In this document: piece after piece, positions 1,414 to 13,556 of the stretch
Layout: each line of letters starts with the position of its first letter
Numbering within the stretch: position 1 is the stretch's first letter
Origin: Aquificota bacterium
GTDB lineage: Bacteria > Aquificota > Aquificia > Desulfurobacteriales > DQVG01
Direction: 5' to 3'
Assembly: GCA_027002265.1 (NCBI GenBank)
Contig: JAMOTM010000053.1
Span: forward strand, 1 to 39,612
DNA length: 39,612 bases
Position numbers and translations under genes: made by a program
The notes under the pieces: model-generated
Seen by the model: only the letters and a program-made list of their open reading frames with translations
Databases searched by the model: none
What the model was told of the DNA's origin: nothing

Positions 1414-2840
1414 TTTAAAATCTCCTTTTTCTCTGAAAAAGGTCTTTTTTCCCCTTTAATCTCTATATAATTTTCATTTCCTTTTCCTGCAAAAAGAAAA
1501 ATATTATTGTGTGTATTAAATTTTCTTAAAGCGTATTTAATAGCATCTTCCCTGTAACGAATAAGAATTATTTTTTCGCTAAACTTATAAAATCCTTTTT
1601 CTTTCAAGATATCATAGATTTTTTTCTTTTCTTCTTTTGGTAAACTCTTTACACCCTCCAAAATATCTAAAAGAATTTCTATATCATCTTCAAAACGTGG
1701 ATTATCCATAGTTAAAATTATCTTTGAAGCATATGGTAAAACGCTTTTTAACATCAAAGGTCTTTTTTTCTTATCTCTGTTTCCACCTGCTCCAAAGATA
1801 ACAATTAAATTTTTATCTGAAAAAGCACTTTTTAAAGCTTTGCATACTCTTTCTAAACCATCTGGTGTATGTGCATAATCTATAAAGATATTTTCTCTTA
1901 TTTTCTCAAGTCTACCTGGAACATAAATATTTTGAATTTCCCTTTTTATACGATCTTTATCCATACCTAAAAGGTATGCAGCATAGCTTGCAAAAGCCAC
2001 ATTTTCAAGATTATAATCTCCAACTAAATTGGTATTTAAATAAAGTTTCTCTTTTCCTAAATCTAAAATTTTTTCTTTTTTCTTTAAAGGTAAAGATAAT
2101 ATCTTACAAGGATATATAGAAGATAAGTTTTTTATGATCAAACTATATTTATCATAAGGATTTATAAGACCATACTTTAAAGTTTGAAAAAATATTTTAG
2201 TTTTGGCTTTAAAATAGTTTTCCATATTTTTATGATAATCCAAATGATCCTGACTAAGATTTGTAAATATACTTAGATAAAAGGGGACTTTATAAACTCT
2301 TTTTTGCTGTAGAGCATGAGAAGAAACTTCCATAACAACATAATCTAAATTTTCTTCATAGGCTTTTTTAAAAAGAAATAGAAGATAATCTAAAGAAGGA
2401 GTTGTTCTAAAGGCCTTTTTTTCAAAATTTCCAAGTTTATAAACTTCGGTTCCTATTAAACCTACTTTGTATTTAAAGCTTAATATTCTCTGCAGTGAAA
2501 AAGCCGTAGTAGTTTTTCCATTTGTTCCAGTAATTCCTATTATTTTTATTTTTTTAAATATTTCTTTTGTTCTATATATAAGATGACATAACTCAAAGTA
2601 CAATTTTTTTAATTTCTCTTGAGGTAAACATATATAAGGAGCTTTAATATTATTTGGCCATTTTTTTTTATTGCTTATAAAAAAGAGCCTAGCTCCTTTT
2701 TCATAGGCAGATCTTATAAAGTCATGTCCATCAAAATTTTCACCCTTGAAAGCTATAAAGGCTGAGTTTGGAAGGACATATCGGGAATCTGAAAAAATAT
2801 AATCCACTTTTTGTATTTTCTCTAAAATACTATTATCCAT
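1404..2840 (-). CDS. murE: UDP-MurNAc-tripeptide synthetase (meso-DAP adding)
   Basis: It adds the third residue to UDP-MurNAc-L-Ala-D-Glu in the cytoplasmic stage of peptidoglycan synthesis. The ATP-binding GTNGKTTT loop lies at residues 105-112. An AKTK element supplies the expected carbamylated lysine, and a DNPR motif near residue 377 marks the meso-diaminopimelate type rather than the lysine type. I place the start at ATG 2840, giving 478 residues. An in-frame TTG at 2864 would add eight residues, but it lies inside a GC-rich hairpin directly upstream and is less likely. The gene sits between a YtxH-like gene and cysE, and its 3' end overlaps cysE. mraY, murF and the other dcw genes are not adjacent. 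Confidence 0.93.
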
Positions 2841-2847
2841 TTTTTTC

Positions 2848-2873
2848 TCAAAAATGGGGGACAAAGCCCCCTA
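2848..2873 (-). terminator. Hairpin with T-tract between the YtxH-like gene and murE
   Basis: On the minus strand GGGGG pairs with CCCCC across a six-base CTTTGT loop, followed by ATTTTT. It begins just after the upstream gene's stop (2875) and ends about 8 bases before the murE ATG. It looks like an intrinsic terminator or attenuator. No promoter was seen between it and murE, so partial read-through or attenuation is more likely than a full stop. Confidence 0.55.
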
Positions 2874-2874
2874 C

Positions 2875-3174
2875 TTAATCTTCTTTGTCCTCCAAAGTTT
2901 TTTCAAGCTCTTTAATTTTTTCCTCAACTTCCTTTAATATATCTTTTTTCTCTTCTTCAGTTATTTCTTCTTTAGAAGCTAAAAGACCTTTTAATTTTTC
3001 AACTATATCATTAACTATAGATTTTGTTCTTTCTGGAAGTTCAGAATCATCAATAATTCCTTGAATTTCTTGGAGTTTTGCTAAAAGCTCTTCTCTTTTT
3101 TTATACGCAAAATAAGATCCAGCTACTCCAGCCACTACTCCAAGTAAAAAACTAAATATTCCACGTCTTGCCAT
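2875..3174 (-). CDS. YtxH-like small membrane protein with coiled coil
   Basis: This 99-residue protein has an N-terminal hydrophobic glycine-rich segment (about residues 5-24, FSFLLGVVAGVAGSYFAYKK) followed by a long, charged, heptad-like helix rich in Lys and Glu to the C-terminus. This is the layout of YtxH/gas-vesicle-like membrane-anchored coiled-coil proteins, whose function is mostly unknown. ATG at 3174 follows AGGAGG. The gene lies between ilvC and murE in the same orientation and is followed by a terminator-like hairpin. The protein is probably exposed to the cytoplasm through its helical part. The family assignment rests on architecture only. Confidence 0.75.
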   Translation of the reverse strand: MARRGIFSFLLGVVAGVAGSYFAYKKREELLAKLQEIQGIIDDSELPERTKSIVNDIVEKLKGLLASKEEITEEEKKDILKEVEEKIKELEKTLEDKED

Positions 3175-3210
3175 AATTTCCTCCTAAATAAAAACAGGTT
3201 TGCTTTTAAT

Positions 3211-4441
<1,231 letters not shown>

Positions 4442-6082: not shown

Positions 6083-6107
6083 GGGGAAATTTTTCCCCTC
6101 TATTTTT
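6081..6107 (+). terminator. Intrinsic terminator after the receiver gene
   Basis: GAGGGGA (6081-6087) pairs with TCCCCTC (6094-6100), followed by TATTTTT. The stem starts in the TGA stop codon. The converging DUF4911-like gene ends at 6100, so the same stem may also end that transcript on the minus strand, although its T-run there is weaker. Confidence 0.8.
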
Positions 6108-6330
6108 CTACTTTTAAAATTTCTATTTTTGAAATTCCTTTTTTCTCGATCTCCTTTAGTATATCAAGAGCATCTTCAACAAAAAATGGAGAGCACCAAA
6201 GCTCTATAATATCGCTTTTTTCTCGAGGTGAATGAACATATGCAACCTCATGATAATACTCAAATATAGCTGTAATTAAAATTATTTTTTTTGGCTCTAC
6301 TTTAACTATAATTTTTTTATCTTTAAACAT
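6100..6330 (-). CDS. DUF4911-like small protein
   Basis: This 76-residue cytoplasmic protein has no signal or membrane segment. An alternating beta-alpha pattern, a YHEVAYVHSP segment and an IELWCSPFFVEDALDILKEI segment resemble DUF4911, a small family found mostly in Thermodesulfobacteriota and Deltaproteobacteria, of unknown function. The ACT-like fold expected from the beta-alpha-beta layout is an inference. The gene is last in the ftsZ-lpxC unit, 10 bases after the lpxC stop. ATG at 6330 is preceded by AAGGG. Confidence 0.65.
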   Translation of the reverse strand: MFKDKKIIVKVEPKKIILITAIFEYYHEVAYVHSPREKSDIIELWCSPFFVEDALDILKEIEKKGISKIEILKVEK

Positions 6331-6340
6331 AGAAAACCCT

Positions 6341-7165
6341 TTAGTTTAAGTATTTTTGTTTTAAAAGTTTAACAAGATTAATATTTAAAATATGATATGT
6401 ATTTTTAGCTTCAATTTTAGCATTTAAAAATTTACCTAAAACATATAAATCTCCAAGTAAATCTAAAATTTTATGCCCTATAGGTTCATGGGAATTTCTA
6501 GGCAAATTTAAAGTAGAATCTTTATCTATAATTAAAGTATTTTCTAAATTTCCCCCTTTTCCAAGTCCCATAGTTTTTATTTTCTCAATATCCTCTTTAA
6601 AACAAAAAGTTCTGCAGGGGGCTATAAACTTTTTAAAATTTTGAGGGGAGTGAATATAATGATAATGCGTTACGTCAATAATTTTTGGAAGATTTCTTTT
6701 AGGTTCAAAATGATAAAGAACTTCAAAATTTGAGGAGGGTTTTAAAACTATATAGCTTTTATTATTTTTTCCAAAAATTTTTATTTCTTCAGGTACACAA
6801 AAAAACTCTTTTCTCTTTTTTAAAATCTCAAAACCTACTTTTTCAATTTCATTTACAAATCCAAGGGCGCTTCCATCTAAAGCTGGAATTTCTATACCCT
6901 CAATTTCTATCAATATATTATCTATTTCAAGACCATGAAGAGCAGAAAATAAATGCTCTAAAGTATATACTTTTTTTCCCTCTATTTCTAAAAAGGAGAA
7001 TCCCGGGCTAGCTTTGAAATTAACATCATTTATAGAATATATTTTACCGTCTATAAAAAAGGATATTCCTCTATCCCATGGATGTAAAACTACTTTTCCT
7101 TCTTCCCCAAAATGAATACCTTTGCCTTTAAAACTTATTTTTTCTTTTATAGTTTTTTGAAAAAT
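6341..7165 (-). CDS. lpxC: UDP-3-O-acyl-GlcNAc deacetylase, probable ATT start
   Basis: This is the zinc enzyme for the first committed step of lipid A synthesis. Reading from 7165 gives 274 residues with the whole family fold: the QKTIKEKISFKGKGIHFG N-terminus, EHLFSAL with zinc ligand H71, IPALDGSA, GGNLENTLI, and GHKILDLLGDLY with zinc ligands H231 and D235. The frame is bounded by a TGA at 7192-7190, and no ATG, GTG or TTG occurs before TTG 6913, which would remove the N-terminal third and H71. AGGAGG (7180-7175) stands nine bases before ATT at 7165-7163, so ATT is the best start. The usual RTFGF motif reads RTFCF. The ftsZ stop lies 14 bases upstream. Confidence 0.88.
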   Translation of the reverse strand: MFQKTIKEKISFKGKGIHFGEEGKVVLHPWDRGISFFIDGKIYSINDVNFKASPGFSFLEIEGKKVYTLEHLFSALHGLEIDNILIEIEGIEIPALDGSALGFVNEIEKVGFEILKKRKEFFCVPEEIKIFGKNNKSYIVLKPSSNFEVLYHFEPKRNLPKIIDVTHYHYIHSPQNFKKFIAPCRTFCFKEDIEKIKTMGLGKGGNLENTLIIDKDSTLNLPRNSHEPIGHKILDLLGDLYVLGKFLNAKIEAKNTYHILNINLVKLLKQKYLN

Positions 7166-7180
7166 TTTAAAAAACCTCCT
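7163..7180 (-). promoter_or_regulatory. Strong ribosome binding site placing an ATT start for lpxC
   Basis: On the minus strand a perfect AGGAGG (7180-7175) begins in the last base of the ftsZ TAA and is followed by a nine-base T/A spacer and ATT. No ATG, GTG or TTG in any frame follows at a usable distance. ATA at 7150-7148 is the only other near-cognate candidate and is 24 bases away. This resembles the AUU start of infC. Confidence 0.7.
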
Positions 7181-8394
7181 TATTCCTCCTCAAGTAAAAG
7201 TCCAAATAATCCTTCGTCTCCTGGTAAAAGTTCTTCTGAACTTGATGAAGAAGAAAATCCAAAGAAGGGAGATTTAACTGCAGTTAAGTCCTGATTTTTT
7301 GGAATATCCATAATATCTTCTATTGTAAAAGTTTGAGAAAAGTTAGTGGCTATTATAGTAACTTCAACTTTTCCAGTTGCTTTCGGATCAACGGTCACTC
7401 CTAGATAAACCACAGCATCATCGCGGTTAGTTAAACTTTTAATATGTTCCCCAACATAAGTAACTTCTTCCATTCTAATATCGGGACCACCACAGATATT
7501 TACAAGTATTCTCTCTGCTCCTTTGATATTATTTAAAGTTAAAAGCTTGTTTTGAACAGCCTTTTCTAAAGCGTCTTTTATTCTATTTTCTCCGGTAGAA
7601 GCTCCAAGTCCTATTAAAGCATATCCTCCATCTCTTAAAACGGATTCAACATCTGCAAAATCTAAGTTAATATATCCCGGATAACTAATAACTTCAACAA
7701 TACCTTTTATAGCTCTATATAAAACATTATCAGCCATTTTCATTACATCTAAGAAAGTTAAATCTTTTCTTGCAATATTTTTTAATTTTTCATTGGAAAT
7801 AACCATAAAAGAATCTACATATCCTTGAATATCTGCTAAAGCTTCTCTTGCTTTTAAAATTCTTTCTCCTTCAAACAAAAATGGTGTAATTAAAACGGCT
7901 ACAGTCAAAATTCCCATTTCTTTTAAAGCTTTTGCAATAACTGGAGTAGCTCCAGTTCCTGTACCTCCACCTAATCCGGCTGTTAAAAATACCATGTCGG
8001 CATCTTTTAAAGCTTCCTTTATTTCATCTAAAGAATCTTCGGCGGCCTTTCTACCTCTTTCTGGATCGCCACCTGCTCCTTGTCCTTTTCTAAAGCCGGT
8101 ATCTTTATTATCTTTTCCTATAGTTATTATTTTTAACTCTTTTCCCTGATCTTTTAAAATTTCATCACATTCTTCTTTTAACATATAAAGTTGTTGAGCA
8201 TCGGTATTTATAGCAATATACTCTACATCTACTTCATAGCGAGCTTTTGTGAAAAACATAGGAAGCTCGGAAGAAGATGGTAAAACGTTAATTCCTTTCT
8301 TAATTATATTTCTGATAGCATTATTTCCAGCTCCACCAATTCCTACAATTTTAATTTTTGCACTATCCTTATTGGAAGTTTTTACATTATCCAT
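7180..8394 (-). CDS. ftsZ: Cell division GTPase FtsZ, with insertions
   Basis: This tubulin-like GTPase forms the division ring. GGAGNNA is at residues 20-26, the GGGTGTG signature at 142-148 and the catalytic T7 loop NLDFAD at 243-248, so nucleotide binding and hydrolysis should work. Compared with typical FtsZ, two stretches are extra: about residues 34-56 between helix H1 and strand S2, and part of 75-100 before the GQGAGGDP loop. The tail has a serine run and ends in GDEGLFGLLLEEE rather than the conserved C-terminal peptide that binds FtsA or ZipA. ATG at 8394 has GAGGGTG upstream, and a TATAAT lies at 8437-8442. It heads the ftsZ-lpxC unit. ftsA and ftsQ are not adjacent. Confidence 0.95.
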   Translation of the reverse strand: MDNVKTSNKDSAKIKIVGIGGAGNNAIRNIIKKGINVLPSSSELPMFFTKARYEVDVEYIAINTDAQQLYMLKEECDEILKDQGKELKIITIGKDNKDTGFRKGQGAGGDPERGRKAAEDSLDEIKEALKDADMVFLTAGLGGGTGTGATPVIAKALKEMGILTVAVLITPFLFEGERILKAREALADIQGYVDSFMVISNEKLKNIARKDLTFLDVMKMADNVLYRAIKGIVEVISYPGYINLDFADVESVLRDGGYALIGLGASTGENRIKDALEKAVQNKLLTLNNIKGAERILVNICGGPDIRMEEVTYVGEHIKSLTNRDDAVVYLGVTVDPKATGKVEVTIIATNFSQTFTIEDIMDIPKNQDLTAVKSPFFGFSSSSSSEELLPGDEGLFGLLLEEE

Positions 8395-12833: not shown

Positions 12834-12930
12834 AAATCATGTTTTAGGTGCAATTTTATTTTATTTTTTTCTTTTTAATATTTTTATTTGGATACCTTAT
12901 ACTGTTATTAAAAGAAGAAAAAAATGGTAG
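12820..12930 (+). CDS. Candidate 36-aa single-pass membrane protein
   Basis: This tiny ORF runs from TTG 12820-12822 to TAG 12928-12930 and fills the gap between ricT and nadD. It starts inside the ricT end (overlap 14 bases) and ends inside the nadD start (overlap 7 bases). After a polar NITENH start, one hydrophobic stretch (VLGAILFYFFLFNIFIWIP) forms a likely membrane helix, and KRRKKW closes it, fitting a positive-inside cytoplasmic tail. AAGGAAG lies 4-5 bases before the TTG. I recognise no family. The tight overlaps and protein-like composition support it, but the AT-rich sequence could give such an ORF by chance. Confidence 0.5.
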   Translation: MNITENHVLGAILFYFFLFNIFIWIPYTVIKRRKKW

Positions 12931-13556
12931 GAATATTTGGTGGAAGCTTTGATCCTATTCATAATGGCCACTTGGAAGTAGCTTTTCAAGTTAGAGATAG
13001 ACTTAATCTGAAAATTTTTTTTGCTCTAACAAAACAAAATCCACTTAAAGAAAGAGCTCTACTATCTTACGAGGAGCGTTTTCATTTATTAAATCTTGCC
13101 ATTAAAGAACACTATAACTTTTATGCTTTAAAAGAAGAGTACATTTATGCTATTGATTTAGTAAAAAAAATAAAAAAAGATTTTAATTTAAATAAAATAT
13201 ACTTTATTACTGGCTTGGATTCATTTTTAAGTTTAAAAAAATGGAAAAATTATAAAGAGCTTTTAAAAGAGACTAATTTTATAATATGTTCCCGAGGAAA
13301 AAAGGAGAATAAGGAAGTATTTTTAAATTTCTTAAAGGATCTTAATATCAACTCCTATAAGATTTTAGACGATTTTTATACTAAATATAATCCTCAAAAT
13401 GAAAAAATAATATATTTAAAAATTCCTTACCTTGAGATATCTTCCACCTTAATAAAAAACTACATAAAACATTCTTTCGATTTATATCCTTATCTTCCGG
13501 AAAAAGTTTATAAATATTTAAAAATTAAAATAGAAAGGGGGAAGCTTCATGTTTAA
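12924..13556 (+). CDS. nadD: Nicotinate-nucleotide adenylyltransferase
   Basis: It joins nicotinate mononucleotide and ATP to form deamido-NAD+. The 210-residue protein has the nucleotidyltransferase GGSFDPIHNGH motif at residues 6-16, a GLDSFLSLKKW segment and the C-terminal ISSTLIKNYI motif that matches the family ISSTxIR signature, with lysine in place of arginine. The ATG at 12924 follows an AAAGAAGAAA stretch. Its 3' end overlaps pgk by 8 bases. In many bacteria nadD precedes rsfS or follows proA; here it leads into pgk. Confidence 0.93.
   Translation: MVGIFGGSFDPIHNGHLEVAFQVRDRLNLKIFFALTKQNPLKERALLSYEERFHLLNLAIKEHYNFYALKEEYIYAIDLVKKIKKDFNLNKIYFITGLDSFLSLKKWKNYKELLKETNFIICSRGKKENKEVFLNFLKDLNINSYKILDDFYTKYNPQNEKIIYLKIPYLEISSTLIKNYIKHSFDLYPYLPEKVYKYLKIKIERGKLHV

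What the first reader, a model, noticed from the sequence alone, without database searches (positions are those of the whole stretch)
7163..7192. lpxC appears to start at ATT behind a perfect Shine-Dalgarno
The full LpxC N-terminus, including zinc ligand H71, is encoded upstream of the first TTG (6913). Back to the stop at 7192 there is no ATG, GTG or TTG in frame. AGGAGG sits nine bases before ATT at 7165-7163, right after the ftsZ stop. AUU starts are known chiefly from infC, where IF3 gives feedback control. Using one for the committed enzyme of lipid A would be unusual and could limit or couple LpxC synthesis to ftsZ translation. A sequencing error is the main alternative.
Basis: partly seen in the sequence, partly recalled or inferred. 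Interest (0 to 1): 0.82.

Follow-up and report, generated by a model that had tools for sequence, protein, structure and literature searches.

The report
Conserved AUU start for lpxC gene
In a little-known bacterial lineage related to Desulfurobacterium, the gene for the key enzyme of outer-membrane lipid synthesis (LpxC) has no normal start codon and almost certainly starts at the rare, weak codon AUU behind a very strong ribosome-binding site; a second, distant species shows the same, so it is not a sequencing error.

Summary
In the lpxC frame (7189 to 6341, minus strand) no ATG, GTG or TTG precedes TTG 6913, and that TTG would remove 84 codons, including zinc ligand H71. The only near-cognate codon at usable distance from the ribosome-binding site is ATT 7165-7163, nine bases after TAAGGAGGT, a site stronger than the best-start site of about 99% of genes in this genome. 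It aligns with methionine 1 of relatives.

The only other held genome of this family (G001, MAG SZUA-1507; LpxC 62% identical, synonymous sites near saturation) also lacks a canonical start and has TAAGGAGG-AAAATT-ATT. All 28 outgroup Aquificota examined have a canonical start. So the ATT, like the ftsZ-lpxC adjacency, was seen only in this family. In about 87% of the genome, lpxC is the only gene of this type with a strong site.

Precedents: infC and pcnB of E. coli; cvfC1 and ccpN of S. aureus. I read this as a new member of a known kind: translation attenuated by an AUU start, partly rescued by an extended SD. The effect on LpxC level, and control by IF3 or ftsZ coupling, are inferred and untested.

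The parts
7163..7165 (-). ATT, inferred start codon of lpxC
   Evidence: Only near-cognate codon at usable SD distance; aligns with M1; ATT also in G001 at L002:1476-1474
7174..7182 (-). Extended Shine-Dalgarno TAAGGAGGT, overlapping the ftsZ stop codon
   Evidence: 9-base match, duplex -13.4 kcal/mol, reached by only 1.3% of genes; TAAGGAGG conserved in G001
7166..7174 (-). Spacer of 9 bases between GGAGG and ATT (6 bases in G001)
6341..7165 (-). lpxC, 274 aa from ATT, UDP-3-O-acyl-N-acetylglucosamine deacetylase
   Evidence: TIGR00325 1.7e-53; PDB LpxC matches to 4e-45; zinc-site and active-site motifs present
7180..8394 (-). ftsZ, ends 14 bases before the lpxC ATT; stop codon is part of the lpxC SD
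   Evidence: TIGR00065 6.5e-94; ftsZ-lpxC adjacency seen only in G000 and G001 of 30 loci
6911..6913 (-). First canonical in-frame codon (TTG); rejected as start
   Evidence: 84 codons after ATT; would delete zinc ligand H71
6100..6330 (-). Small downstream gene (76 aa, ATG start), no NCBIfam match; likely same transcript

Best explanation
lpxC of this family is initiated by the ordinary initiator tRNA at AUU (7165-7163), recruited by an unusually strong, extended Shine-Dalgarno that overlaps the ftsZ stop codon. The weak codon lowers, and the strong SD partly restores, initiation, so LpxC is made at a low set rate relative to ftsZ on the same message. Shown here: no canonical start exists, only one near-cognate codon is usable, it aligns to M1, the SD is exceptional, and all of this recurs in a second, diverged species. 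Inferred: that AUU is used in the cell, that it lowers yield, that lpxC and ftsZ share a message, and that IF3 modulates it.
For: No ATG/GTG/TTG in the 10 codons before the conserved [QE][KRQ]T motif, nor back to the in-frame stop, in either family member, against 28 of 28 outgroup lpxC genes with one. G001 carries TAAGGAGG, then AAAATT, then ATT TTT CAA AAA ACT, although synonymous sites are near saturation (fourfold identity 14/41 in lpxC, 52/113 in ftsZ). ATT corresponds to M1 in TIGR00325; Aquificaceae loci L010 and L018 read ATG CTN CAR AAA ACN in the same register. SD duplex energies -13.4 (G000) and -12.1 (G001) against a genome median of -8.1 kcal/mol. Precedent: S. aureus AUU/AUA starts sit behind extended SDs and give about 10% of AUG yield in poor medium (PMC13009471).
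Against: No ribosome profiling or N-terminal peptide. Only two genomes of the family are held, both fragmented (81 and 160 contigs). G001 has an in-frame TTG five codons after the ATT (L002:1461-1459), which could in principle serve there, although it is about 21 bases from the SD and would delete the conserved QKT motif; G000 has ATA at that codon. The initiator tRNA and 16S 3' end were not found in the DNA examined, so a usual anti-SD and initiator tRNA are assumed.
Confidence: 0.88

Rival explanations
1. Sequencing or assembly error: the true codon is ATG (or an indel in the T6/A4/T5 runs hides a canonical start).
For: The window comes from a draft assembly, and the site lies among homopolymers; ATT is one base from ATG.
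Against: G001, a separate draft genome with strongly diverged DNA, shows the same lack of a canonical start and the same SD-ATT arrangement. No ATG, GTG or TTG exists in any frame between the SD and the QKT motif, so one indel would not create one.
Confidence: 0.04
2. LpxC is made as an extension of FtsZ by frameshifting or stop readthrough, not by initiation.
For: lpxC follows ftsZ directly; in G001 the ftsZ stop is in frame with lpxC.
Against: In G000 the two genes are in different frames (a -1 shift would be needed), so no single recoding mechanism fits both; the strong SD and spacing would then be unexplained.
Confidence: 0.02
3. Initiation at another codon: ATA 7183-7181 overlapping the ftsZ stop, or in G001 the downstream TTG.
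For: ATA is near-cognate and overlaps TAA, as coupled genes often do; a TTG is present in G001.
Against: ATA 7183 lies one base after the upstream AGGAGG and inside the region of the main SD, and is not conserved in G001; TTG is absent at that codon in G000 (ATA), far from the SD, and removes a motif present in all 30 genes.
Confidence: 0.05
4. AUU is used, but it is a neutral, tolerated variant with no regulatory meaning: the strong SD makes the codon nearly irrelevant.
For: mobA and perhaps coaX of this genome also lack canonical starts, hinting at general tolerance; infC here does not use AUU.
Against: Retained between two species at near-saturated synonymous divergence although a single change would give ATG; combined with an exceptional SD as in regulated precedents.
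Confidence: 0.4

Closest known systems
E. coli infC (IF3) AUU start
   Same: AUU start used as a brake on synthesis and sensitive to IF3 (Butler et al. 1987, cited in PMC1780047; Sacerdot et al. 1996, cited in PMC2268962)
   Different: lpxC is not a translation factor, so no self-feedback loop; infC of this very genome starts with ATG
E. coli pcnB AUU start (Binns and Masters 2002, cited in PMC1780047)
   Same: A gene outside the translation machinery kept low by an AUU start
   Different: Unrelated gene and phylum; shown experimentally there, only inferred here
S. aureus cvfC1 (AUU) and ccpN (AUA) (PMC13009471)
   Same: Conserved non-canonical start combined with an extended SD, shared by related species
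   Different: Mapped by Ribo-Ret and reporters; different genes; Firmicutes
lpxC of other Aquificota (28 genomes)
   Same: Same enzyme, same N-terminal register
   Different: All have a canonical start; none shows ftsZ in the upstream flank held, 1.5 kb in all but one, L030, with 0.6 kb

Membership tests
LpxC (TIGR00325) | Full-length homology from the first residues to the C-terminus, with zinc-site motifs | tested here: met
   TIGR00325 residues 2-271 on model 2-274, 1.7e-53 (181.9 bits, slightly under the 187.25 cut-off); the G001 ortholog is over the cut-off; PDB LpxC matches to 4e-45; H71, H231, D235, H258 motifs present
Genes with a non-canonical AUU start | No ATG/GTG/TTG can produce the conserved N-terminus | tested here: met
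Genes with a non-canonical AUU start | AUU at proper distance from a strong SD | tested here: met
   TAAGGAGGT with 9-base spacer in G000; TAAGGAGG with 6-base spacer in G001
Genes with a non-canonical AUU start | Conserved in an independent relative | tested here: met
   G001 (L002, L031); only one such relative is available
Genes with a non-canonical AUU start | Initiation at AUU demonstrated by peptide, profiling or reporter | not testable with these tools
   no wet data
infC-type IF3-controlled AUU genes | Expression falls with rising IF3 activity | not testable with these tools
   inference from E. coli work only (PMC2268962)

The most novel reading that the evidence does not exclude
In this family the IF3-sensed start codon has moved from infC (ATG here, ATT/ATC/ATA in Desulfurobacteriaceae) to lpxC, so that free IF3, that is, the translation state of the cell, sets lipid A synthesis and ties envelope growth to ribosome status and to the adjacent ftsZ message.
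Probability: 0.1. Interest if true: 0.75.

Novelty: new member of a known kind. Interest (0 to 1): 0.5.

Why it matters
Conserved AUU starts outside infC are known for only a handful of genes, and my paper searches found none recorded for lpxC (open-access library only). In well-studied bacteria LpxC is chiefly held in check by proteolysis (general knowledge, not tested here), so a start-codon brake would be a different way of limiting the committed step of lipid A synthesis. It also means that gene finders looking only for ATG/GTG/TTG would truncate this gene. A CTG start in mobA conserved across the order suggests that near-cognate starts are under-annotated in these genomes.

Tried and rejected
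Sequencing error: rejected by G001. Frameshift or readthrough fusion with ftsZ: rejected because the frame relation is not conserved. Start at TTG 6913: loses the zinc ligand. ATA 7183: wrong SD distance, not conserved. A special initiator tRNA reading AUU: 33 tRNA matches in the genome, nothing unusual among those typed in the sampled contigs, but no typical initiator tRNA and no tRNA-Ile(GAU) was seen either, so this cannot be settled. RNA structure masking the SD: predicted folding of the start region is ordinary (-6.3 kcal/mol; genome median -8.6) and differs between the two species, so no conserved structure is claimed. 16S anti-SD: not found in the stretches read. More family members: only two genomes held; the genome-contig scan added only G001's own contig plus two Pelagibacteraceae contigs.

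Full report
Observation. The lpxC frame on the minus strand is bounded upstream by TGA 7192-7190 and reads GGA GGA ATA AGG AGG TTT TTT AAA ATT TTT CAA AAA ACT; there is no ATG, GTG or TTG before TTG 6913-6911. From ATT the product is 274 aa, MFQKTIKEKISFKGKGIHFGEEG..., with H71, H231, D235 and H258 in the LpxC metal and active-site motifs. TTG 6913 is 84 codons later and would remove H71. ATT aligns with position 1 of TIGR00325, and residue 3 aligns with residue 4 of A. aeolicus LpxC. The SD is 9 bases (TAAGGAGGT, 7182-7174) and contains the ftsZ stop; 9 bases separate GGAGG from ATT.

Independent test. The window is one contig of a draft genome (G000, 1.39 Mb, 95% complete). Only one other genome of its family is held, G001; the contig with its lpxC is public as MAG SZUA-1507, 'Desulfurobacteriaceae bacterium'. 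Its LpxC is 62% identical and lies behind ftsZ as in the window. Its start region reads TAA ATA TTA GTA AGG AGG AAA ATT ATT TTT CAA AAA ACT: again no canonical start before the QKT motif, again TAAGGAGG, again ATT immediately before TTT CAA. Fourfold-degenerate sites are identical at only 14 of 41 (lpxC) and 52 of 113 (ftsZ) positions, so the shared arrangement has had ample time to change. The same error in both genomes is very unlikely. In all 28 outgroup genomes (same order and class) a canonical start lies within 10 codons before the motif. None of them shows ftsZ in the upstream flank held (1.5 kb, but only 0.6 kb for L030). So the ATT and the ftsZ-lpxC junction were both seen only in this family.

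Is it special within the genome? I read about 87% of G000 and predicted 1020 genes with a simple codon-usage method. lpxC is the only one with an SD match of 6 or more bases before a near-cognate codon and a long coding stretch before its first canonical start. Its SD energy (-13.4 kcal/mol; G001 -12.1) is reached by only 1.3% of genes at their best canonical start; this assumes the usual anti-SD, which was not found in the assembly. In a comparison with 122 kb of G001, 71 frame pairs share a canonical start at the same offset. Of the seven longer pairs without one that I read through, six have a canonical start a little further along in each genome, and the seventh is the nadD-like gene that looks frameshifted in G001. 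lpxC is the one gene pair I found lacking a usable canonical start in both. The remaining flagged frames are mostly short frames lying over other genes; I did not check them one by one.

Weak points. G001 has an in-frame TTG just after the QKT motif. It is about 21 bases from the SD, would delete a motif present in all 30 lpxC genes examined, and has no counterpart in G000 (ATA). Both genomes are drafts. There are no expression or protein data. TIGR00325 scores the window protein slightly under its cut-off (181.9 against 187.25 bits), though the ortholog passes.

Mechanism. Work cited in PMC2268962 shows that raised IF3 inhibits initiation at non-canonical codons in E. coli. In S. aureus, conserved AUU and AUA starts sit behind extended SDs and give about a tenth of the AUG reporter in poor medium (PMC13009471). 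The anatomy here matches that pattern: weak codon, exceptional SD. The most economical reading is translational attenuation of lpxC relative to ftsZ. A neutral reading, in which the strong SD makes the codon matter little, is not excluded and I give it substantial weight. IF3 sensing and ftsZ coupling rest on anatomy and analogy alone. In this genome infC itself starts with ATG (AAGGAGGATTAATGAGACGT), whereas infC of the Desulfurobacteriaceae examined shows ATT, ATC or ATA at the equivalent place.

Related leads. mobA appears to have a CTG start overlapping the upstream stop (CTGA) in G000 and five Desulfurobacteriaceae loci, but GTG in G001. coaX of G000 lacks a canonical start; ATA overlapping the upstream stop or a later ATT are candidates, and no ortholog was found in G001.

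Verdict. Observation confirmed; reading as an AUU start well supported; regulatory role plausible but open; new member of a known kind.

Noticed in passing
L190 (G000:C10:9848-10390 -), L192, L193, L194, L195, L198: mobA (molybdenum cofactor guanylyltransferase) has no suitable canonical start in G000 and five Desulfurobacteriaceae genomes; all carry CTG overlapping the upstream TGA stop (CTGA), mostly behind a purine-rich SD. G001 has GTG there (L191).
   Followed up: partly
L044 (G000:C10:479-736 -) and L034-L054: infC (IF3) starts with ATG in the window's genome, while Desulfurobacteriaceae relatives show ATT, ATC or ATA there, so the classical IF3 self-control codon seems absent here.
   Followed up: partly
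L147 + strand 2692-3439 (G000:C52:21735-22439 +, also L175): coaX (type III pantothenate kinase) lacks any canonical start at its N-terminus; candidates are ATA overlapping the upstream stop (GGAGG 10 bases before) or ATT giving MFFDIGNT. A homopolymer error is possible.
   Followed up: partly
L155 + strand around 6536 (G001); window 12924-13556: A nadD-like gene intact in the window appears frameshifted near its start in G001: draft error or broken gene.
   Followed up: no
G000 whole genome: No typical initiator tRNA, tRNA-Ile(GAU) or 16S 3' end was seen in the sampled contigs; probably assembly gaps at rRNA operons.
   Followed up: partly
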